Source of the DNA: Meiothermus sp. | GTDB taxonomy: Bacteria; Deinococcota; Deinococci; Deinococcales; Thermaceae | NCBI RefSeq assembly: GCF_026004055.1 | Contig: NZ_BPIJ01000002.1 | Span: forward strand, 683,803 to 747,802 | Length of the DNA: 64,000 bases | Direction of reading: 5' to 3' | Shown: piece by piece, positions 49,758 through 63,746 of the stretch | Position numbering within the stretch: the first letter of the stretch is position 1 | How the letters are laid out: each line of letters begins with the position of its first letter | Notes under the pieces: generated by a model | Seen by the model: the letters and a program-made list of their open reading frames with translations, nothing else | Databases searched by the model: none | Told to the model about the DNA's origin: nothing | Position numbers and translations under genes: made by a program

Positions 49758-50095
49758 TGGTCTGGTAACTTAATTTCCGAAGTTTTGTACCGCACACCGA
49801 ATACATCGATGTAGAGATTCCATCCCACTTCGGCCCCCGAGATGGCCTAAAAACGCCCTCCCTACCGCGTAGGGAGGGTGGGGGAGGGTATCAGGCAAGG
49901 CCCCCAATCCGCTGGGTGAAGGGCCAGGTCAGCCACCCCACCTGGCCTCCCCTACGCAGTAGGGGAGGGAAGGGGCGAAGCGGGGTGGGGTGCTTTTTGC
50001 ATGACCGTACAGGCAAGGCACCGAAGGCCCAGGTTTACGAGACAGGGCGCGTTCTGAAGGCTAAACCCCATACTGCGTATTTTGTTACCAGAGCA
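49758..50095. repeat. MITE-like family B element (B2), 338 bp, TSD TTAG
   Basis: Same length and nearly the same sequence as B1. Left end TGGTCTGGTAAC, right end GTTACCAGAGCA, flanked by TTAG at 49754-49757 and 50096-50099. Confidence 0.9.
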
Positions 50096-50098
50096 TTA

Positions 50099-50562
50099 GA
50101 GCGCTCTTCTCAAATATCGAGCCATCGGGGACTAATACCGGATTCAAAAAGATACTCTTCAAAACCAAAAACCCAGAGGCTATCTTTTTGAATCCTAGAG
50201 CACACCCCTCCCTGACGGTCGGCGAAAAAAACGTCTCCCTTCCAAGGGGCGGTATCGCCCTCCGCTACGCGGATAACTTTGGTCGGGTTAGTTCGTCACC
50301 ATTCGGTGACGAACTAACCGAATCTGGTATAAGAATCTTTTGTCCTGGACAGAACAGTGGCCGCCGGGAAACTCGAAACCCAAGCACCCGTGGCCCACGC
50401 CCCAGTGCGTAACATGCGTCTGCCAGGGAATGGCTTATGCCATAGCCACAATGTGGCTAACCTGGCCCAGACGCAACGCAGACAAGCGTGCCTCACCGAG
50501 GTGAGGCACGTCTGCTTGTCCCTTCTCGTTTTCGTGGGTGGCCACGTTCGTGAAGAGTGCTG
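50099..50562. repeat. MITE-like family D element, inverted, with family A inside (D2)
   Basis: Ends GAGCGCTCTTC and GAAGAGTGCTG, flanked by TA; inverse of 42042-42843 without the B insertion. Without A it is about 267 bp. Includes the AAGCGTGCCTCACC hairpin, whose right arm is altered (GGTGAGGCACGTCTGC). Confidence 0.82.
50136..50329. repeat. MITE-like family A element (A6), 194 bp, TSD TAA
   Basis: From TACCGGATTC to GAATCTGGTA, flanked by TAA (50133-50135, 50330-50332). Same A-in-D junction as A5, so D2 and D1 descend from one composite. Confidence 0.92.
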
Positions 50563-52585: not shown

Positions 52586-52653
52586 CGCGGATTGTCATCC
52601 CAAGTCCAAGGGTTCACGGTACCGGAGCTGTTGAGCCCAGGGCCTTGGGTAGT

Positions 52654-53202
52654 TCAAATCCTGGGTAGGGTAATACCCCGCTGGCCCTGGTACTTGCCCT
52701 TGCGGTCGCCGTAGGTCACTTCCGGGCGTTCGCCCTCGAAGAACACAAGCTGTACCACCCCTTCCCCAGCGTACATCTTGGCCGGCAGGGGGGTGGTGTT
52801 GGAGAACTCGAGGGTCACGTGCCCCTCCCAGCCGGGCTCCAGCGGGGTAATGTTGGCTACGATGCCCACCCGCGCATAAGTGCTCTTGCCGATGGCAATG
52901 GCCAGGACGTTATCCGGCATGCGGATATACTCCATGCTGCGGGCCAGCACAAAGGAGTTGGGGGGAATGATCACCTCATCGCCTTCGTAGTCCACAAAAC
53001 TTTTGGGATCCAAGCCCTTGGGGTCGGCGATGGTGTGAAACACGTTGGCAAAAATTTTCCACTCCCTGGCTGCGCGCAGGTCGTAGCCGAAGCTCGAGAG
53101 TCCATAGCTAATTACGCCATCGCGCACCAGGCATTCCTCAAAAGGCTCAATCATGCCTTGCTTGGCTTTTTCGCGTATCCACCAGTCGGGCTTGACGCTC
53201 AT
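52654..53202 (-). CDS. dcd: dCTP deaminase
   Basis: A 182-residue trimeric-dUTPase-fold enzyme deaminating dCTP to dUTP for dTTP synthesis. It begins [19 protein letters not shown], has [25 protein letters not shown] and the catalytic Glu in [18 protein letters not shown], and ends [19 protein letters not shown]. Start ATG 53202 with a −10-like TATAGT 7 bp upstream (53210-53215, − strand), so leaderless; an upstream in-frame ATG is spurious. Confidence 0.94.
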
Positions 53203-53321
53203 GCCCCACACTATACAAGGGCCGGCGCTGGCTGCGGTTGACCCGATGCAGCAGGCCCTGATGAGTAAAAGCAGGGATATTTTCACAACGCAGGTTCATG
53301 TTGGAGCCTAAACTAAATACC

Positions 53322-54602
53322 ATGCGCAAGCTTTTTGGATGGGGAACTGTATTGCCGGGTTTGCTCCTTGTCGCTGGCGTTCTGCTTGCATCGTGTGGCT
53401 CCGACAGCCAAAACAACCAAAGCCGCCAACCTTTGCGCCTGACACTCCGCTTCGATCCAGGCTATGTGGATGAGCCCTACAGCACCGCCCTCACCGCAGA
53501 CGGGGGAATACGACCTTATAAGCTCACCCTCGAGGGCAACCTGCCCAAAGGCCTTGTCTACAGCAGTGGGCGCATCAGCGGAACCCCGCAGGAGACGGGT
53601 AGCTTCGAGCTTACCATTAGCGTAGAAGACGCCAATCTCTCCAACCGTACCCAGAAAGTTACCCTGACCATTGGGGAAACCCCGCCTCCCCGGCTCGACC
53701 AGGTCTTTCCCCTGGCCGAAGTCTCCGACCCCTTTCCCTATCTGTTCCGGGTGCGCAACCGCGAGGCCAGGGGCTTCCAGGCCCAAATTCCCCTCAAAGA
53801 CCTCAAAGCCACCCTGGATAGCTTCAAGGCCGATGCCAACGTGCTCTATGTGCTTCGCTACGACGAGGAGAAGGGCCTTTTAGACATTGACGCGGCCTTT
53901 ACTGGCCCACGCAAAGACTTCGAGGCCTTTCGCTTTACCGCGGTTCCTCTGCCCGAGAAAAAAGTCCGACCCGAGCTAAGCTTCCGCGAGACCCGGGTGG
54001 CCTTCTACGACAAGAACGGCAAGCTGGCGGGCAACGCCCAAGCCATCGAACGGGTGAGCACCCAGGGGCGCTACAAGTACAGCGACCTCGAGGCCATCGC
54101 GCGCAACTGGGGCCGCCGCCTGACCCCACCCCAAGGCCCGGCTGCCAACCCGCCGAGCCCTGCTCCGGCCACCGAGAACCAAGCCGCTAACCCTCCTGGC
54201 ACCAGCGAACCCGCACCCCCCAGCCCAGCACAGCCCCCTCAACCTGGGCAAGCGCAGCCACCCCAACCTGGGCAAGCGCAGCCCACCCAACCTGGGCAGG
54301 CACAGCCCACCCCACCTCCAGCCCAACCTGGCCCCGCCTCACCCCCAGAGGGTCAGCCTGCGCCGGCCCCATCCCCCGAGGCCCAAAAGCTCGAGGGCGA
54401 TCTCAACAGCGATGGCGTGGTAGATCAAAAAGACCTGGAACAGCTGCGCTCCTCCTATGCCTGGGCCGGTGTAAGCGCCGGACAGGCCCCGCCACCCGCC
54501 AACCAGCGCACCCCCACCCCGTCCGGCGGAACCCCTGGCTCGAGTTCTGGTGGCTCCAGCCCTGGCGACGAGGAGAACCCCGATAGCTCAGAAGGCAAGT
54601 GA
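53322..54602 (+). CDS. Lipoprotein with Ig-like domain, Pro-rich repeats and a dockerin-like Ca2+ loop
   Basis: A 426-residue secreted protein. It starts MRKLFGWGTVLPGLLLVAG then VLLASC, a lipobox, so the Cys is lipidated. Residues ~40-120 are a He_PIG-type Ig-like fold (GYVDEPYSTALTADGGIRPY; ISGTPQETGSFELTI). The later region has four proline-rich PQPGQAQ-type repeats (24-bp DNA unit near 54234-54310), then EGDLNSDGVVDQKDLEQLRSSY, a single dockerin/EF-hand-like loop (DLNSDGVVD). The end is Ser/Gly/Pro-rich (GGTPGSSSGGSSPGD). ATG 53298 is a possible earlier start. It precedes the DUF1175 and macroglobulin genes and may be a surface partner. Confidence 0.82.
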   Translation: MRKLFGWGTVLPGLLLVAGVLLASCGSDSQNNQSRQPLRLTLRFDPGYVDEPYSTALTADGGIRPYKLTLEGNLPKGLVYSSGRISGTPQETGSFELTISVEDANLSNRTQKVTLTIGETPPPRLDQVFPLAEVSDPFPYLFRVRNREARGFQAQIPLKDLKATLDSFKADANVLYVLRYDEEKGLLDIDAAFTGPRKDFEAFRFTAVPLPEKKVRPELSFRETRVAFYDKNGKLAGNAQAIERVSTQGRYKYSDLEAIARNWGRRLTPPQGPAANPPSPAPATENQAANPPGTSEPAPPSPAQPPQPGQAQPPQPGQAQPTQPGQAQPTPPPAQPGPASPPEGQPAPAPSPEAQKLEGDLNSDGVVDQKDLEQLRSSYAWAGVSAGQAPPPANQRTPTPSGGTPGSSSGGSSPGDEENPDSSEGK

Positions 54603-54671
54603 ATAAAATCGGCGTTCGGTGCAGCTATCTTTGTATGACCGGGCCCCAAAACCCTCTACCTTGATTTGCCC

Positions 54672-54703
54672 CCGGTAGCTCGATATTTGTGAAGAGCGCT
54701 CTA
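54672..54703. repeat. Solitary end of a family D element
   Basis: Matches the last ~32 bp of family D (GCTCGATATTTGTGAAGAG, then CGCTCTA) with no other D sequence nearby. It lies in the 160-bp gap between the lipoprotein and DUF1175 genes. Confidence 0.65.
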
Positions 54704-54761
54704 CATGACAAGCAAATAAAGTGACCAGGCCACTTGGCTCGCGCTACAATCGGTACTAAAT

Positions 54762-55505
54762 ATGGCGCATTGGGCCAAAAGACTTTGGGCGGGGGGGCTT
54801 CTAGGGCTCATGGGTTTAGTGCTGGCCACATCCCTCAGTCCGGCCCCACCCGACCTCTCCGACCTCGACCAGGACGGCTATCCCGATGTGGCCGAGTTCC
54901 ATAGCACCGCCCAGCGCGAGGCTTTTCTGGCGTGGTTTGCAGCCATTGCCGAGGCCCAGTTCACCGCCCCCTCGCCGGCCTGGCCCGCCGAGGCGCAGGA
55001 CTGTTCCGGCCTGCTGCGCTTTGCCTTTGTGGAGGCTCTGAAGCCCAAAACCCCGGACTGGTTTCAGAAGTTCCCCTACCTGCCCAAGGTGCAGGCCCCG
55101 CCCCTGGGCACGTTTCCCTTGCCGCAGATTGGCCGCGCAGTCTTTCGGGTGGCCCCCGGGCCCTACCGCCCCGACGATGTACGAGAGGGTCGGCTGGTGG
55201 GCTGGACCAGCGCCATGTACCTGATGTGGTACTCGAGCGTCCCCTTAGGCCGCACCCCGGACAAAGCCCGGCGCGGCGATCTGCTCTTTTTCGTGCGCCC
55301 CCTGGCCAAAGGCTCGGCCTACCACAGCATGGTCTACCTGGGGAACGGCCTGGTGGTCTACCACACCGGCTACGCCCCCTCGGAAGGCGGGGAGGTGCGG
55401 CTGGTGAGCCTCAAAACCCTGAACCAGCACCCCCAGAAATACTGGCACCCCAGGCCCGAGAACCCCTATTTTCTGGGGTTTTATCGTTGGAAAATCGTGC
55501 ATTAG
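54762..55505 (+). CDS. DUF1175 (YfaT-like) secreted protein
   Basis: A 247-residue exported protein: signal segment LWAGGLLGLMGLVLATSLS, then DLDQDGYPDVAEFHS (an EF-hand-type Ca2+ loop), AQDCSGLLRFAFVEAL, and GSAYHSMVYLGNGLVVYHTG. The DCSG...H arrangement resembles the Cys and His of NlpC/P60-type peptidases, which suggests DUF1175 is a cell-wall peptidase-like protein. In E. coli, YfaT is encoded beside the alpha-2-macroglobulin YfaS and here the same neighbour follows. A −10-like TACAAT lies 11 bp before the ATG. Ends PYFLGFYRWKIV. Confidence 0.85.
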   Translation: MAHWAKRLWAGGLLGLMGLVLATSLSPAPPDLSDLDQDGYPDVAEFHSTAQREAFLAWFAAIAEAQFTAPSPAWPAEAQDCSGLLRFAFVEALKPKTPDWFQKFPYLPKVQAPPLGTFPLPQIGRAVFRVAPGPYRPDDVREGRLVGWTSAMYLMWYSSVPLGRTPDKARRGDLLFFVRPLAKGSAYHSMVYLGNGLVVYHTGYAPSEGGEVRLVSLKTLNQHPQKYWHPRPENPYFLGFYRWKIVH

Positions 55506-55634
55506 CCCATCCCATCCGGAGGCCCCATGAGACCCCATCCCCAGTCCGCGCTCGCCCCTCCTGCCGAACCACTGCCCACGAAACGGTACAAGTGGCATGC
55601 AAAAAATCGGGAATTCGCACCTAGATGAGGTGGT

Positions 55635-58600
55635 ATGAAAAGCAAACATTTAGAGGGTCTGAAGCGCTTTATTCAAGCTGGGATAGGGTTGCTGGGGTTG
55701 GTCTTGATGGGCCTGCTTCCCAGCTCGGCCCAGCGCCAGGAACCCCAGTTGTATGGGGGCGGCACCTATAGTCCCACCCAGCCGGTACAGCTGGAGTATT
55801 ACCTGCCGGGGGGCGGCAGCAGCCAGATCCGCCTCCTGCGGATTCAAAACCCCGAGAAGGTGGTGGAGCTGGGGGGGCCGCGCGATTTTCAGCGCACCCG
55901 CGAGCTCAGTTTGTCGCCGGTGCGAACCGTGCCGGTCTTTCGCACCCGTAATAACCCCTACGGCAACGTGACGATTGGGCGCTTGCCCGAAGGGTTGTAC
56001 CTGGCCCAGATTGGCACCCCACGCCCCACCTCGGCCACTTTGGTGCTGGTGACCAACCTGGGGCTGGTGGTCAAGTCCGACCCACAGAGCCTGCTGGTCT
56101 ACACCGCCAGCCTGAACAATGGGCAGCCCCGCACTGCCCAAATTTTCGTTTCACAGGACAAGCGCATCGTGCAGCAGGTGCGGGCCGAGGGCGGGCTGGC
56201 GCAGTTCCGCAGCAACCTGAAGAACGCCGACAATCTAAATCTATTTGTGGCTGCCCGCTCGGGCGCCTCCTGGGCTTTTAGCAGCGCCTACTGGCGAAGC
56301 TGGAACCAGGAGCAAAACCGGGTCTACCTGGTTACCGACCGCCCGGTCTACCGCCCCGGCCATACCGTGTTTTTCAAGGGAACGGCCCGCAGCGCAAGCG
56401 GCCTGCACCCCATCGCGGGCCGGCCGGTGGAAGTGGTGGTGCGCGACTACGACGATACCGAGGTGTTTTCGGGCCGCTTCACCACCGATGCCTACGGCAG
56501 CTTTAGCGGGCAGTTTCGGGTGGGCCTGGATGCGCGGCTGGGCACCTATACGCTGGTGGCCCGGCTGGGGGGTGAGGAGCATTCGGGCGAGTTCGAGGTG
56601 CAGGAGTTTGTCAAGCCCGAGTATCGGGTCAGCGTAAGCGCGGAGAAAAAGGTAGCGGTGCAGGGGGAGAAGGCCCGCTTTGTGGTGAAGGGAGAGTACC
56701 TGTTTGGCGGCCCGGTCTCGGGGGGCAGGGTGAGTTACTCCATCATCCAGCGGCCCTACTACCGCTTTGCGTACACCTCGAGCTTTGGCTTCTACCAGAA
56801 CGACGAATTTGAGGATTTTTACGAGGGCAAGATCATAGAGCGGGGCGAGGGGCGGCTCAATGCCCAGGGGGAGCTGGTGGTGGAGGTGCCCCTGAAGCCC
56901 GAGGCCGAGGACTACCGGCTGACCCTCGAGGTCGGCGTGACCGACGAGGCCGGACGCGAAATTAGCGGAACCGGCTTCATCACCGCCTACCGCTCGGGGA
57001 TTGTGTTGGACATCCAGACCGACCGGTATGCCTACCAGACCCAGGACACCCTGGTTGCGACCGTGCGGGCCGAAGACTTGGAGGGCCACCCCGTTTCGGT
57101 GCCCTTTACCCTGACCGCTAGCCGCGCCTACTGGGTGCGGGGCCAGGGGGAGCAACGCGAGCGCACCCTGCGCCTGCAAGGCCGCACCGATGCCAGGGGC
57201 CAGGCCACCGTGCGCCTTAGGCTGCCCAAGCAAGGCGCCTATGCGCTGGAGGTGGAGGCCCGCGATGGGGCCGGACGGGCCACCCGTGCCGAGGAACAGA
57301 TCTGGGTCTCGGATGGTTCGTCCTGGTTTTGGGACTACAAAAGCCTGAAGATTACCCCGGACAAGCTCGAGTACAAAACAGGCGAGACCGCCCGCTTTGT
57401 GGTGCAGTTGCCGGTCTCGGACGGCTGGGCGCTGGTGAACCTGGAAGGGGAGCGCCTGGCCCGGCCCGAGATTGTGCGCTTTAGGGGCTCCACCTTCACC
57501 TACGAACTAAAGCTCACCCCGGAGATGGCCCCCAACGGCTACCTCTCGGTCACCATCCTGGGCCAGGGGGAATACTACAGCGAGGTAGCGGGCTTTTTGC
57601 TGCCGCCCAGCGAGAAATTCCTGAACGTAGCCATCGCCTCCGACCAACCCACCTACAAGCCCGGCGAGACCGCCACCTACCGCCTGACGGTGACCGATGC
57701 CCAGGGCCGCCCGGTGAAAAGCCAGGTGACGGTGGGGCTGGTGGACGAGGCTATCTACCTGGTGCGCCCCGAGAAAGCCCCGGACATCCGCGGCTTCTTC
57801 TGGGCCCTCAAGAACAACGTGGTGGGCACCCAGACCGCCGGAGGCTACTACTTCGGCAATGTGGCCCCTACCCCCAGCGCGGCGGCCCGGGCTCCCATGG
57901 ACAAGGCCGTCTTCGGGCAGGCCAAAGAGTCGGCCGCCCAGCCCCAGGTGCGTGAGGACTTCCGCGATACCATCCTCTGGCTACCCAGCGTGGAGACGAA
58001 CGAGCAGGGTGAGGTCACCATAGAGGCTAAGCTTCCCGACAACCTGACCCAGTGGCGCCTGACCGCCCGGGCTATTTCGCTCTTTGATACCGTGGGGCAG
58101 GCCACCCAGACCGTCACCACCACCCTGCCCGTCATTGCCCGGCTCAGCACTCCGCGCTTCCTGATTCGGGGGGACGAGGCCACCCTGCGGGTGATCGGGC
58201 AGAACAACCTGAACGAAGACCAGGCGGGGCAGCTAAGGCTCGAGGCCGCCGGTCTCAGCTTACTTACCCCCCCCACCACCTTGGCCCAGCTCCCCGCCGG
58301 GGGCCGAGCCGCGGCGGGCTACCGGGTGCGGGCCGACCAGAGCGGTAGCGCCACCCTGCAAGCCTCGGCCCTTACCCCCGCGGCCTCGGATGCCCTGCGT
58401 ACCCGGCTCTCCATCTTCCCCAAAGGGCTCAAGCAGGAGCTGGGCTGGGCCGCTCAGTCCGGCGATGCCTGGGCTTTTACCTTGCCCGAGGGCACCGACC
58501 TCTCGCAAACCCAGGGCAAGCTCTACCTCACCCCCTCGCTGGCCGCTGCCGTCACCCCGGCCCTGGGGTATCTGGCCGGGTATCCCTACGGCTGCTCCGA

Positions 58601-60107
58601 GCAGACCATGAGCCGCTTCCTGCCCAGCGTGCTGGCCAAGCAAGCAGGCGACTTTGCCCAGTTGCCCGAGAATCTGGCAGCGGGCCTCGACGACTTTGTG
58701 GCCGCCGGGCTCAAACGCCTCTACGACTTCCAGCACGACGACGGCGGCTGGGGCTTCTGGCAAAACGACGCCTCCTCGGTCTACATCTCTTCGTACGTGC
58801 TCTCGGGGCTTTTACAGGCCCAGGAGGCCGGCTACGCGGTGCGGGAGGACGTGCTCAAGCGGGGCGTAGAGTACCTGCTCAAAACCCTGAACCGGCCCGA
58901 TGCCGACACCTATGCCGCAGACGCGGTGGCCTACGCAAGCTACGCTTTTGCCCTGGCCGGGAGCCGCTACCTGCGGCAGGGCTTCAGGCAGGGTTCCCTC
59001 CAGGCCAGCCTGCCCCGGCTGACCCGCGCCGCCTACCGTCAGGACAAGCTCGATTTCAGCTACCTGCAAGACTACCTCAAGCGCTCCGACCTGACCCCCT
59101 ACGGCCACGCCCTGATTGTGCTCGCCTACCAGCAAAACGGCGACACCGGCCTGGCCCAGACAGCCCTGGACGGCCTGCTACGCAAGCTGACCGAACGGGA
59201 GCGCAGCGCCTACTGGGAGGTGCGGGCCCCGCGCTTTGCCTGGAACGATGACCGCCTCGAGGCCACCGCCCGGGGTCTGGAAGCCTTGGCCAAACTGCGC
59301 CCGAACCACCCGGTGGTTCCCAAAATTGTGAACTGGCTGATGCAGGAGCGCAAAGGCGCCCGCTGGGTTTCCACCAAGGACACCGCCGCCGTGGTGGTGG
59401 CCGCACTGGCCCTGGCCAAAGCCACCGGCGAGCAACCCGGCGAGCAGGAGGTAGAGCTTTCGGTCAACGGACAAATCCAGACCCTGCGGGTGCCGGCCAA
59501 GGGCGCCGAACTGGCCCTGGAAGGCTTGCAGGTGGGGGCCAACGAAGTGCGGGTTACGAGCCAAAACCGCCTGTACCTGAGTGGCAGCGTGGCCTACTTC
59601 GAGGAACGCGAGTACCTGCAACCCGAGGCCCGGGGCCTGCGGGTAGCCCGCACCTACGAGAAGCTCACCCCCCGCTACGACGCCAAGGCCGAGCGCTTCG
59701 TCTTCGACCGTAGCCCGCTCAGTGGATCGCTGAAGGTGGGCGAGCTGCTGGTCGTGACCCTTACGGTGCGCCCCGAGCAGGGGGCGGTGCGGTATGTGGT
59801 GGTGGAGGAGCCTACCCCGGCGGGCCTGAGCGTGGTGGAAAACGACGACTCGTTCCGCATTGCCGGGGTGCGCTCCCGCTTTGGCGACGATTACTACGGT
59901 TGGAACTACTGGTTCGACGGGCGGGAGATCCGCGACCGGCAGGTGGAGTTCTTCTTCAGCTACCTGGAAGGCCCCGTCACCTTTACCTACGTCCTGCGGG
60001 CCGAGACCCCCGGCAACTTCACCGCGCTGCCCACCCTGGCCTGGATGATGTACGAGCCGGAGGTGCGGGGGGTGGGCACGGTACGGCAGGTGCGGGTGAG
60101 CGAGTAG
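55635..60107 (+). CDS. Bacterial alpha-2-macroglobulin with thioester motif
   Basis: A 1490-residue exported protein (signal peptide FIQAGIGLLGLVLMGLLPSS) with repeated macroglobulin domains, for example VYLVTDRPVYRPGHTVFFKG (MG2 motif, residues ~230) and KPEYRVSVSAEKKV. The A2M signature FRDTILWLPSVETNEQG is followed by LPDNLTQWRLTARA. The thioester motif YGCSEQTMSRFLPSV has Cys987-Ser-Glu-Gln990, so it can covalently trap proteases; the alpha/alpha thioester domain follows (DDGGWGFWQNDASSVYISSY). It is of the YfaS type, with adjacent YfaT-like gene. Anchoring by a lipobox is not evident. Role: protection against host or competitor proteases. Confidence 0.93.
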   Translation: MKSKHLEGLKRFIQAGIGLLGLVLMGLLPSSAQRQEPQLYGGGTYSPTQPVQLEYYLPGGGSSQIRLLRIQNPEKVVELGGPRDFQRTRELSLSPVRTVPVFRTRNNPYGNVTIGRLPEGLYLAQIGTPRPTSATLVLVTNLGLVVKSDPQSLLVYTASLNNGQPRTAQIFVSQDKRIVQQVRAEGGLAQFRSNLKNADNLNLFVAARSGASWAFSSAYWRSWNQEQNRVYLVTDRPVYRPGHTVFFKGTARSASGLHPIAGRPVEVVVRDYDDTEVFSGRFTTDAYGSFSGQFRVGLDARLGTYTLVARLGGEEHSGEFEVQEFVKPEYRVSVSAEKKVAVQGEKARFVVKGEYLFGGPVSGGRVSYSIIQRPYYRFAYTSSFGFYQNDEFEDFYEGKIIERGEGRLNAQGELVVEVPLKPEAEDYRLTLEVGVTDEAGREISGTGFITAYRSGIVLDIQTDRYAYQTQDTLVATVRAEDLEGHPVSVPFTLTASRAYWVRGQGEQRERTLRLQGRTDARGQATVRLRLPKQGAYALEVEARDGAGRATRAEEQIWVSDGSSWFWDYKSLKITPDKLEYKTGETARFVVQLPVSDGWALVNLEGERLARPEIVRFRGSTFTYELKLTPEMAPNGYLSVTILGQGEYYSEVAGFLLPPSEKFLNVAIASDQPTYKPGETATYRLTVTDAQGRPVKSQVTVGLVDEAIYLVRPEKAPDIRGFFWALKNNVVGTQTAGGYYFGNVAPTPSAAARAPMDKAVFGQAKESAAQPQVREDFRDTILWLPSVETNEQGEVTIEAKLPDNLTQWRLTARAISLFDTVGQATQTVTTTLPVIARLSTPRFLIRGDEATLRVIGQNNLNEDQAGQLRLEAAGLSLLTPPTTLAQLPAGGRAAAGYRVRADQSGSATLQASALTPAASDALRTRLSIFPKGLKQELGWAAQSGDAWAFTLPEGTDLSQTQGKLYLTPSLAAAVTPALGYLAGYPYGCSEQTMSRFLPSVLAKQAGDFAQLPENLAAGLDDFVAAGLKRLYDFQHDDGGWGFWQNDASSVYISSYVLSGLLQAQEAGYAVREDVLKRGVEYLLKTLNRPDADTYAADAVAYASYAFALAGSRYLRQGFRQGSLQASLPRLTRAAYRQDKLDFSYLQDYLKRSDLTPYGHALIVLAYQQNGDTGLAQTALDGLLRKLTERERSAYWEVRAPRFAWNDDRLEATARGLEALAKLRPNHPVVPKIVNWLMQERKGARWVSTKDTAAVVVAALALAKATGEQPGEQEVELSVNGQIQTLRVPAKGAELALEGLQVGANEVRVTSQNRLYLSGSVAYFEEREYLQPEARGLRVARTYEKLTPRYDAKAERFVFDRSPLSGSLKVGELLVVTLTVRPEQGAVRYVVVEEPTPAGLSVVENDDSFRIAGVRSRFGDDYYGWNYWFDGREIRDRQVEFFFSYLEGPVTFTYVLRAETPGNFTALPTLAWMMYEPEVRGVGTVRQVRVSE

Positions 60108-60233
60108 CGGTGTGGGGGGGCCTCGAGCGCAAAATGAGACCTACGCAGTGTGCAGTTGTACCCACTCCTACGCGATAGGCTCGCGCCCTGCCGGGCCTCG
60201 AGCTTCACGCCAGGGAGGGGAGAGGGTCGTGCA

Positions 60234-60884
60234 ATGAAGGCCTCTATTCCTCGCCCTCGCGCGCCCACTCCGCTGCCGGTGTGGCTGATCGCAGTCTGGT
60301 TGGTCGTCCTGACCCCAGCCCTGGCACAGAACTGGCAAACCGCACAGGCCCCCGGCTTCGTGGTACGGTACGTCGGGAGGGCGGACGCCCTTCACTTGCC
60401 CGATGTGTTCAGGGTTTTGCAGAAAGCCCGGCAAGATTTACAAACTATGGGCCTCTCCCTACCGCCCATAGTGCGGGTGGTCATCCACCCCAACCTGAAG
60501 TCCTATACAGCCTCGACGCGGCTGCCGTGGTTTGTGCTGGCCGCCGCCCACCGAAGCAAAAACCAGATTGATAGCCAGCGCCTGCGGGTTCTACGGGAGC
60601 GGGGAACCTTAGAACGCACCCTGCGCCACGAGCTCTTTCACCTGGCCCAGCCCGAGGGCTGGCCGCGCTGGAAAGCCGAGGGGATGGCCATGCGCTTTGC
60701 GGGTGAGCAGCCGGTCGCCAGGCCCCTCGAGGCCATTACCGAGGCCGAGCTCGAGCGCCTGCTAACCAACCCACCCGACCGAGAGACCCTTCGCCGGGCC
60801 ATGGCCACCGCCTATCGCTGGACAAGTCGGCTGGTTAGGTCGATAATCAATGGTCTATCGGCCATAGACCATCGGCGCAATTGA
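60234..60884 (+). CDS. Exported HExxH metallopeptidase-like protein (peptidase MA type)
   Basis: A 216-residue protein with a signal segment (LPVWLIAVWLVVLTPALAQ) and the zinc motif TLRHELFHLAQPEGW (HExxH), then PRWKAEGMAMRFAG, the downstream P-x-W-x-x-EG of gluzincin peptidase-MA proteins. The N-terminal VIHPNLKSYTASTRLPWFV is family-like. ATG 60234 is preferred over the longer frame, with GAGAGGGTCGTGCA before it. It is co-oriented with the macroglobulin 127 bp upstream; such proteases are plausibly part of the same envelope defence or remodelling system. Not established. Confidence 0.72.
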   Translation: MKASIPRPRAPTPLPVWLIAVWLVVLTPALAQNWQTAQAPGFVVRYVGRADALHLPDVFRVLQKARQDLQTMGLSLPPIVRVVIHPNLKSYTASTRLPWFVLAAAHRSKNQIDSQRLRVLRERGTLERTLRHELFHLAQPEGWPRWKAEGMAMRFAGEQPVARPLEAITEAELERLLTNPPDRETLRRAMATAYRWTSRLVRSIINGLSAIDHRRN

Positions 60885-62249
<1,365 letters not shown>

Positions 62250-62351
62250 TTTCAACTTCCTCCGGCCTGTTTGTGGAATACGGTGGCAGGTCAGCCCACA
62301 CAGACAGCGCAAATCATACCAAGTTTGGATAGAGAGGCTTCCAAAAGCCAG

Positions 62352-62742: not shown

Positions 62743-63080
62743 TGGTCTGGTAACTAAATTTCCGAAGTTTTGTACCGCACACCGAATACATCGTTGTAGA
62801 GATTCCATCCCACTTCGGCCCCCGAGATGGCCTAAAAACGCCCTCCCTACCGCGTAGGGAGGGTGGGGGAGGGTATCAGGCAAGGCCCCCAATCCGCTGG
62901 GTGAAGGGCCAGGTCAGCCACCCCACCTGGCCTCCCCTACGCAGTAGGGGAGGGAAGGGGCGAAGCGGGGTGGGGTGCTTTTTGCATGACCGTACAGGCA
63001 AGGCACCGAAGGCCCAGGTTTACGAGACACGGCGCGTTCTGAAGGCTAAACCCCATACTGCGTATTTTGTTACCAGACCA
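62743..63080. repeat. MITE-like family B element (B3), 338 bp, TSD CTAG
   Basis: Same length as B1 and B2. Flanked by CTAG at 62739-62742 and 63081-63084. Ends TGGTCTGGTAAC and GTTACCAGACCA. Confidence 0.93.
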
Positions 63081-63082
63081 CT

Positions 63083-63218
63083 AGAGCGGTTCCCACGAAT
63101 AGTCCCTACGGCGGTTTTTGCTGTAGGGACTACAATACGAGCCACCGCGTGGGCCCTTTTGGTGAGAACCGCGATAGAAAGACCTTCAAAGCACCCGATA
63201 TTCGTGGGAGGCCGCTCT
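63083..63218. repeat. 136-bp inverted-repeat element E
   Basis: Ends AGAGCGGTTCCCACGAATA and TATTCGTGGGAGGCCGCTCT are near-perfect inverted repeats. An internal GTCCCTAC ... GTAGGGAC hairpin is present. A partial inverted copy lies at 49411-49506. It fills the space between family B and nrdR. Confidence 0.7.
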
Positions 63219-63221
63219 GGT

Positions 63222-63746
63222 TCAGACCGTTCCTAGCTTGGCCTCGTCGGCCAGATTGAGGGCATCCTCATCTTCGGCCTTGTGTGCTTTTTTGCCCTTG
63301 CCGGGTTTGCGATCCAGCTTGCGCACCTCTTCGATAAAGTTTTCCAGGCTGTCAAACTCGCGGTAGACCGAGGCGAAGCGGATGTAGGCCACCGGATCCA
63401 GTTCTTTCAAGAATGCCAGGGAGCGCAGCCCGATCTCCTCGGAGGTAATTTCCATTTCCTTGACCGTGTCCTCAAAGCCAAAGGCAAACTCCTGCAATAC
63501 CTCGGGGTCAATGGGGCGTTTCTGAGCGGCCAGGCTCAGGCCGCGCAGCAGCTTGTTGGGGTCGAAGGTCTCTTTGCGCCCCGAACGCTTGATCACGAGC
63601 AAAGGCTCCACCTGGGCCCGCTCGTAGGTAGTAAAGCGACGTTTGCAAGCCGGACACTCCCGGCGGCGGCGAATGACCGAGCCCTCGTCGGAAGGACGCG
63701 AATCCAGCACGCGGCTATCGGGGTTTCCACAAAATGGGCAGTTCAT
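63222..63746 (-). CDS. nrdR: NrdR transcriptional repressor
   Basis: A 174-residue NrdR: the zinc ribbon MNCPFCGNPDSRVLDSRPS and CPACKRRFTTYER (four Cys), then an ATP-cone (LLVIKRSGRKETFDPNKLLRG). It represses ribonucleotide reductase genes in response to dATP/ATP. The C-terminal ~25 residues (RKPGKGKKAHKAEDEDALNL) are a charged tail beyond the usual ~150. ATG 63746 is chosen by homology; a longer in-frame codon is spurious. Confidence 0.95.
   Translation of the reverse strand: MNCPFCGNPDSRVLDSRPSDEGSVIRRRRECPACKRRFTTYERAQVEPLLVIKRSGRKETFDPNKLLRGLSLAAQKRPIDPEVLQEFAFGFEDTVKEMEITSEEIGLRSLAFLKELDPVAYIRFASVYREFDSLENFIEEVRKLDRKPGKGKKAHKAEDEDALNLADEAKLGTV

What the first reader, a model, noticed from the sequence alone, without database searches (positions are those of the whole stretch)
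53322..60884. Envelope cluster: Ca2+-loop lipoprotein, YfaT-like protein, alpha-2-macroglobulin, HExxH protein
YfaT/YfaS pairing is known in E. coli. Here both the lipoprotein (DLNSDGVVD) and the DUF1175 protein (DLDQDGYPD) carry DxDxDG calcium loops, and a putative zinc protease follows. The DUF1175 protein has DCSG...H as in NlpC/P60. Together they may form a calcium-dependent surface complex that traps attacking proteases and trims the wall.
Basis: partly seen in the sequence, partly recalled or inferred. Interest (0 to 1): 0.56.

Follow-up and report, generated by a model that had tools for sequence, protein, structure and literature searches.

The report
Wall-linked bacterial protease-trap gene trio
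A heat-loving bacterium carries a three-gene set (a cell-wall-enzyme-like protein, a chemically armed protease trap and a likely zinc protease) that travels together across several bacterial phyla, often beside wall-building enzymes, and it blurs the accepted split between two kinds of bacterial protease trap.

Summary
The genes are real and correctly read, but the unit is three genes, not four. DUF1175 (54762-55505), alpha-2-macroglobulin (A2M, 55635-60107) and an HExxH protein (60234-60884) are conserved side by side in Deinococcota and gained or lost together. The lipoprotein (53322-54602) is a near-universal Deinococcota gene that lies elsewhere in relatives; here it is next door through a rearrangement.

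DUF1175 has the NlpC/P60 fold, and its nearest solved structure is Pseudomonas MagC. The A2M carries an intact CxEQ thioester (Cys987). The HExxH protein has a gluzincin metallopeptidase fold and no significant Pfam or NCBIfam match of its own.

In 80 DUF1175 loci from many phyla, 58 of 59 assessable neighbouring A2Ms keep CxEQ; only an Escherichia copy lacks it. So DUF1175-linked A2Ms are not inherently the thioester-less 'Type II' of the literature. In Acidobacteriota the HExxH domain is fused to a penicillin-binding transpeptidase and SpoIID (9 of 9 aligned). E. coli YfaQ, at the same operon position, has SpoIID and a C-terminal HExxH.

Best reading: an envelope-defence module coupling a covalent protease trap to cell-wall enzymes. 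The calcium-dependent four-protein complex is not supported. The HExxH enzyme's role is inferred, not shown.

The parts
54762..55505 (+). DUF1175 protein (MagC/YfaT homologue), NlpC/P60 fold, N-terminal export signal by eye
   Evidence: PF06672 5.7e-48, PF00877 5e-6; phmmer to MagC 7bk8 4.9e-21; AlphaFold2 pLDDT 90.6, MagC VIA-align Z 21.1
54861..54887 (+). DLDQDGYPD calcium-type loop N-terminal to the NlpC/P60 domain
   Evidence: nearly invariant columns D34 D36 D38 D42 in 18 Deinococcota rows; motif in 50 of 80 loci; absent from E. coli YfaT
55002..55004 (+). Candidate catalytic Cys81 (DCSG); partner His188 is at 55323-55325
   Evidence: invariant in 42 rows; the scan that gathered most rows could use a DC[SA]GL pattern, but the 18 Deinococcota rows came from the family HMM
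55635..60107 (+). Alpha-2-macroglobulin, 1490 aa, export signal by eye
   Evidence: MG2, bMG3 (below cut-off), bMG5, A2M_BRD, A2M, TED, bMG10; YfhM structures 2e-46
58593..58604 (+). CSEQ thioester motif (Cys987 to Gln990)
   Evidence: conserved in 22 of 22 longest A2M ORFs of L078-L099
60234..60884 (+). HExxH protein, gluzincin-like metallopeptidase, export signal by eye
   Evidence: AlphaFold2 pLDDT 88.7; M1 / LTA4H / collagenase folds VIA-align Z about 11; Foldseek collagenase H 3.3e-4; H134 E135 H138 E151 invariant in 22 rows
60627..60680 (+). HELFH...E zinc-site motif (HExxH-x12-E)

Best explanation
The locus is a compact envelope-defence module of three exported proteins. The A2M is a bait-and-thioester trap: an intruding enzyme cuts the bait region, the trap changes shape, and Cys987-Gln990 couples it covalently to the attacker (inferred from domains and motif). 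DUF1175, like its relative MagC, sits at or on peptidoglycan through its NlpC/P60 fold and ties the trap to the wall (fold shown; wall contact reported for MagC, inferred here). The HExxH protein is a metallopeptidase that works on the wall side of the module, probably on wall peptides during local repair or remodelling; this is inferred from its fusion to a penicillin-binding transpeptidase and SpoIID in Acidobacteriota. The lineage is the DUF1175-linked A2M family, of which the thioester-less Escherichia YfaS is a changed offshoot. The neighbouring lipoprotein is not part of it.
For: Linkage: in 111 Deinococcota genomes DUF1175 is found in 21 and the HExxH protein in all of those 21 plus 3 others; the A2M query matches in all 24. 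DUF1175 abuts A2M in 18 of 21, HExxH abuts A2M in 23 of 24 (coordinates). In the window's genus 13 of 18 genomes hold all three and 5 of 18 hold none. HExxH profile hits in 80 DUF1175 loci: 30 downstream, 0 upstream, in 207,785 bases after the A2M against 571,726 upstream bases. Whole-genome check of 34 of the 80 loci: 22 genomes have a match and in 18 of these the only match genome-wide lies beside the A2M (contigs). Wall link: 9 of 9 aligned fused proteins carry Transpeptidase and SpoIID; separate Transpeptidase and SpoIID genes occur in L119, L161 and L174. DUF1175 fold. Literature: the P. aeruginosa mag operon protects against peptidoglycan-targeting T6SS effectors (PMC12663445, passages).
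Against: No enzyme activity was tested. A 2023 survey calls DUF1175 'inactive'. Two HExxH relatives have lost a metal His (L119, L139), so catalysis is not needed everywhere. In P. aeruginosa MagD did not form a stable complex with MagC or MagE in vitro. In Deinococcota no transpeptidase or SpoIID gene sits in the trio. 2 of 21 Deinococcota genomes keep DUF1175 away from the A2M (G002, G007).
Confidence: 0.5

Rival explanations
1. Activator reading: the HExxH protein is the dedicated processing protease of the A2M. It cuts the trap at a set site and so arms or fires it, a convertase-like pair in a bacterium.
For: HExxH directly follows the A2M in 23 of 24 Deinococcota genomes. In P. aeruginosa, loss of magE (the gene after magD) disturbs MagD amount and processing. 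E. coli YfaQ, the gene after yfaS, ends in a stretch with HEYLH.
Against: MagE was reported as cytoplasmic and not stably bound. That YfaQ equals MagE rests on position only; MagE was not read here. Profile similarity between the Deinococcota HExxH family and the YfaQ C-terminus is weak (hhalign Prob 21% and 53%). Fusion to transpeptidase and SpoIID points to the wall instead.
Confidence: 0.25
2. Scaffold reading: DUF1175 and the HExxH protein are non-catalytic adaptors that place a plain protease trap at the wall.
For: DUF1175 is called inactive and peptidoglycan-binding in PMC10318531; some HExxH relatives lack a metal ligand; non-catalytic NlpC/P60 RipD is among the fold matches.
Against: Cys81 and His188 are invariant in 42 DUF1175 rows; H, E, H and the distal E are invariant in 22 Deinococcota HExxH rows and in the 9 fused proteins.
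Confidence: 0.15
3. One reading: the four genes form one calcium-dependent surface complex.
For: Both DxDxDG loops exist and are conserved in their own families.
Against: Lipoprotein in 102 of 111 genomes against 21 for DUF1175, at a different place in all 19 other genomes that hold both; window homology to relatives changes block between 54603 and 54786. YfaT lacks the DUF1175 loop.
Confidence: 0.03

Closest known systems
Mag complex of Pseudomonas aeruginosa / yfa operon of E. coli (MagC-MagD-MagE, YfaT-YfaS-YfaQ; 'Type II' A2M)
   Same: DUF1175 gene directly before the A2M; next gene in E. coli (YfaQ) carries SpoIID and a C-terminal HExxH; MagC is the closest solved structure to the DUF1175 protein.
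   Different: A2M here keeps the thioester; no DUF2138 (YfaA), DUF2135 or full DUF2300 gene in the trio; HExxH is a small separate protein; DUF1175 carries an N-terminal DxDxDG loop that YfaT lacks.
E. coli YfhM (ECAM) with PBP1c ('Type I' A2M)
   Same: CxEQ thioester, bait region, bacterial MG domains.
   Different: No pbpC next door; the tree puts YfhM with other Deinococcota A2Ms (G092, which has a PBP1c-like neighbour, and G088) and apart from all DUF1175-linked ones.
NlpC/P60 peptidoglycan endopeptidases (LytE, RipA/RipB, CwlO)
   Same: Fold and Cys-His pair of the DUF1175 protein.
   Different: Extra N-terminal loop and helices, long insert between Cys and His, operon partner of A2M.
Gluzincin metallopeptidases (M1 aminopeptidases, LTA4 hydrolase, bacterial collagenase catalytic subdomain)
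   Same: Predicted fold and HExxH plus downstream Glu of the HExxH protein.
   Different: Only 12 residues between HExxH and Glu; no M1 or M9 accessory domains; sequence not recognised by Pfam or NCBIfam.

Membership tests
Mag / 'Type II' A2M system | DUF1175 (MagC/YfaT) gene adjacent to the A2M gene | tested here: met
   18 of 21 Deinococcota genomes; window gap 129 bases
Mag / 'Type II' A2M system | A2M lacks the CxEQ thioester (definition in PMC5764988) | tested here: not met
   YPYGCSEQ at Cys987
Mag / 'Type II' A2M system | six-gene operon with the other Mag genes | tested here: not met
   only three genes; flanks are the lipoprotein and an unrelated flavin oxidoreductase gene
Mag / 'Type II' A2M system | multi-protein complex on the inner membrane | not testable with these tools
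   needs biochemistry
'Type I' A2M (YfhM/PBP1c) | CxEQ thioester | tested here: met
'Type I' A2M (YfhM/PBP1c) | pbpC adjacent | tested here: not met
   no such gene beside the window A2M; in G092 an A2M of the other lineage does sit next to Transgly-Transpeptidase-BiPBP_C
'Type I' A2M (YfhM/PBP1c) | groups with YfhM in an A2M tree | tested here: not met
   YfhM, G092 and G088 form a separate set, SH-aLRT 100, quick method
NlpC/P60 superfamily | papain-like NlpC/P60 fold | tested here: met
   PF00877 over cut-off; Foldseek and VIA-align
NlpC/P60 superfamily | Cys and His of the active site | tested here: met
   Cys81, His188 invariant; a possible third catalytic residue was not assigned
NlpC/P60 superfamily | peptidoglycan hydrolysis | not testable with these tools
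   MagC family called inactive in PMC10318531
Gluzincin metallopeptidases | HExxH with a downstream Glu ligand | tested here: met
   H134, E135, H138, E151 invariant in 22
Gluzincin metallopeptidases | thermolysin-like catalytic fold | tested here: met
   (Z about 11, rmsd 2.8-4.6, 151-168 residues in the listed rows)
Gluzincin metallopeptidases | zinc binding and peptidase activity | not testable with these tools
   needs biochemistry

The most novel reading that the evidence does not exclude
The ancestral DUF1175-linked macroglobulin is not simply a protease inhibitor but a complement-like effector of a wall-guarding machine: a dedicated metallopeptidase fires the thioester at sites of wall damage, coupling the macroglobulin covalently to wall amines or to invading enzymes, while transpeptidase, SpoIID and NlpC/P60 partners rework the wall. 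Thioester-less 'Type II' forms are late derivatives.
Probability: 0.12. Interest if true: 0.85.

Novelty: new variant of a known kind. Interest (0 to 1): 0.52.

Why it matters
Bacterial A2Ms have been split into Type I (thioester, with PBP1c) and Type II (no thioester, mag operon). These loci show a third, widespread arrangement: Mag-type partner with thioester, in at least eight phyla (origins). They also reveal an HExxH domain, without a Pfam or NCBIfam match of its own, fused to or lined up with wall enzymes. This offers concrete candidates for two questions that the Mag papers leave open: what processes MagD, and why an A2M operon protects against peptidoglycan-targeting T6SS effectors.

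Tried and rejected
Lipoprotein as fourth member: rejected by position in relatives.

Thioester loss in L123 and L132: my first regex (P.GC.EQ) counted three thioester-less A2Ms; the alignment shows YPYHCTEQ and YPFRCSEQ, so CxEQ is present and only L187 lacks it.

HExxH as a chance neighbour of common peptidases: rejected by 0 of 30 profile hits upstream and one match per genome in most genomes. Against this, 4 of the 22 genomes with a match have it elsewhere (G115, G132, G139, G140), and 12 of 34 have none.

Correlation of thioester loss with loss of the DUF1175 Cys-His: not seen; the single thioester-less case keeps both. L144 keeps Cys but not the Asp before it.

Clear homology of the HExxH family with YfaQ's C-terminus: only suggestive.

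Pfam scan of 22 HExxH proteins: no common family; DUF5700 in 2 of 22, best 3.1e-4. PDB sequence search of the HExxH protein: nothing at E 1.

The paper PMC5764988 contradicts itself on the magC deletion (text: no pronounced effect; legend: 100 kDa form absent), so I do not lean on it.

Not in print as far as these searches show: DUF1175 (2 papers), DUF2300 (0), MagC with NlpC and macroglobulin (1), macroglobulin with SpoIID and other terms (top rows only seen). Most subscription papers are not held; the MagC paper (FEBS Lett 2021) was seen only as a reference.

Full report
What is there. The window lies in a 3.18 Mb Deinococcota genome, close to named Meiothermus species. Pfam finds DUF1175 and NLPC_P60 in the second, a full bacterial A2M in the third, a putative Ig domain in the lipoprotein, and nothing in the HExxH protein. 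Start of the HExxH gene: ATG 60234 (sequence). The thioester is YPYGCSEQ with Cys987.

The unit is three genes. In 111 genomes of the phylum the lipoprotein is in 102, DUF1175 in 21, the HExxH protein in 24, and A2M matches in 43. All 21 DUF1175 genomes have the HExxH protein; the three extra (G003, G023, G072) have an A2M or a remnant. DUF1175 abuts the A2M in 18 of 21 (G097 is at a contig end; G002 and G007 are apart). The HExxH gene abuts the A2M in 23 of 24 (G003 is on another contig). Of 19 other genomes with both DUF1175 and lipoprotein hits, 0 have them close together. Blastn shows the same: homology with M. hypogaeus, G035 and G040 starts at 54786-54813 and runs through the trio into the flavin oxidoreductase gene at 60885-62312, whereas dcd plus lipoprotein (52653-54603) is a separate block in relatives. 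In the five genus members without the trio, homology at the oxidoreductase gene begins at 60855-60904, at or just before the end of the trio. A lipoprotein tree of 17 genomes places G031, and G032, G033 and G037, in different places among carriers, which suggests more than one joint loss or gain (weakly supported forks).

DUF1175. MagC of P. aeruginosa is the best PDB sequence hit (4.9e-21). The AlphaFold2 model (pLDDT 90.6, 42 rows) matches MagC at Foldseek 2.2e-12 and VIA-align Z 21.1 over 187 residues, then NlpC/P60 proteins at Z about 10-11. Cys81 and His188 are invariant; for the wider set this is partly forced, since one of the two scan patterns was DC[SA]GL. The review PMC10318531 (passages) calls the family inactive; its source is the MagC paper, seen here only as a citation. 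The DxDxDG loop is nearly invariant in Deinococcota and found in 50 of 80 wider loci, and is missing from YfaT.

HExxH protein. The model from 22 Deinococcota rows has pLDDT 88.7. Foldseek gives clostridial collagenase peptidase domains (3.3e-4); VIA-align gives LTA4 hydrolase, M1 aminopeptidases and collagenases at Z 11.5 down to 10.7, above the level that the tool warns about for chance. H134, E135, H138 and E151 are invariant in the 22.

Other phyla. A scan of genome contigs with a DUF1175 alignment gave 80 loci, the best of 432. With a profile from Deinococcota, 63 of 80 have an A2M behind DUF1175; 4 of these are cut off, leaving 59. Of these 59, 56 show P.GC.EQ, 2 more show CxEQ with a changed preceding Gly (L123, L132), and 1, Escherichia L187, lacks it. 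The sample favours relatives of the Deinococcota form, so this is not an unbiased frequency. The HExxH profile hits 30 times, all downstream (26 on the same strand, 4 on the other), in 207,785 bases behind A2Ms; upstream there are none in 571,726 bases. In 34 whole genomes behind these loci, 22 have a match; in 18 it is the only one and lies beside the A2M (contig lengths confirm G114, G118 and G120); in 4 it lies elsewhere; 12 have none.

Wall enzymes. In Acidobacteriota the HExxH domain is the C-terminus of an approximately 900-residue protein; 9 of 9 aligned members match Transpeptidase and SpoIID. In L161 (Spirochaetota) the A2M is followed by DUF2135, Transpeptidase and SpoIID genes and a small HExxH gene; in L119 by DUF2135, an HExxH-like gene without the first His, SpoIID and Transpeptidase; in L174 by Transpeptidase, SpoIID and HExxH; in L139 by Transpeptidase and an HE-only relative. 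E. coli K-12 has yfaA (DUF2138), yfaT, yfaS (pseudogene), yfaQ, yfaP. YfaQ matches DUF2300 twice and SpoIID and ends in LTHEYLHLAFDGYPTGLDENYIETLTRQLLMD; L185 (Aeromonadaceae), with the complete E. coli-type order, ends alike and its A2M has CxEQ. Direct profile comparison of these C-termini with the Deinococcota family is weak (Prob 21% and 53%), so the equivalence rests on position, motif and the SpoIID neighbour.

Tree. In a quick A2M tree of 41 rows YfhM joins two Deinococcota A2Ms, one of them (G092) next to a PBP1c-like gene, on a long branch; all DUF1175-linked A2Ms, with the thioester-less L187 next to thioester-bearing L185, are on the other side. The tool warns of long branches, so the fine order is unsure. 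On this tree, thioester loss in the Escherichia line is secondary.

How it probably works. Domains and motif make the A2M a bait-triggered covalent trap. DUF1175 probably holds it to peptidoglycan. The HExxH enzyme most likely acts on the wall side, with A2M processing as the main rival. Two papers bear on this. PMC5764988 (introduction, discussion and one results section read, plus passages) defines Type I and II, reports that MagD traps a protease without a thioester, and finds MagD amount and processing disturbed without magB or magE. PMC12663445 (passages) finds the mag operon protective against the peptidoglycan-targeting effectors VgrG3 and, to a limited extent, Tae1, and asks what Type II A2Ms really do. 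A module tied to transpeptidase, SpoIID and NlpC/P60 proteins is a natural candidate for wall guarding. No step of this mechanism was tested here.

Verdict. A new variant of a known kind: the DUF1175-linked A2M lineage in a thioester-bearing, three-gene form, with an HExxH domain that Pfam and NCBIfam do not recognise.

Noticed in passing
window 53322-54602: Dockerin-like half repeat (GDLNSDGVVDQKDL) in a lipoprotein with a He_PIG domain that is near-universal in Deinococcota (102 of 111 genomes) and lies beside dcd in the genus.
   Followed up: partly
window 54603-54786: Rearrangement junction: the upstream block (dcd plus lipoprotein) and the downstream block (trio plus oxidoreductase gene) lie apart in relatives.
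   Followed up: yes
window 60837-60884: The last codons of the HExxH gene run into a palindromic intergenic repeat (ATGGTCTATCGGCCATAGACCAT at 60850-60872) and differ from the aligned relatives.
   Followed up: partly
window 49916-50191 and 62901-63236: Two ORFs share a nearly identical start (MKGQVSHPTWPPLRSRGGKGRSGVGCFLHDRTGKAPKAQVYET...), probably a dispersed DNA repeat.
   Followed up: no
L037 / L104 (G023): A2M match reduced to the last 126 positions while the HExxH gene remains open and DUF1175 is gone: a decaying cassette.
   Followed up: partly
L027 (G040) and L022/L023 (G099): HExxH gene with one in-frame TAA, and DUF1175 split over two frames: possible decay or assembly errors.
   Followed up: no
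L185 7193-16565: Aeromonadaceae locus with the complete E. coli yfa-type order whose A2M has a CxEQ thioester.
   Followed up: partly
L209 and L206 (G007): One Deinococcales genome with two thioester A2Ms, one followed by the HExxH gene, and DUF1175 on a third contig.
   Followed up: partly
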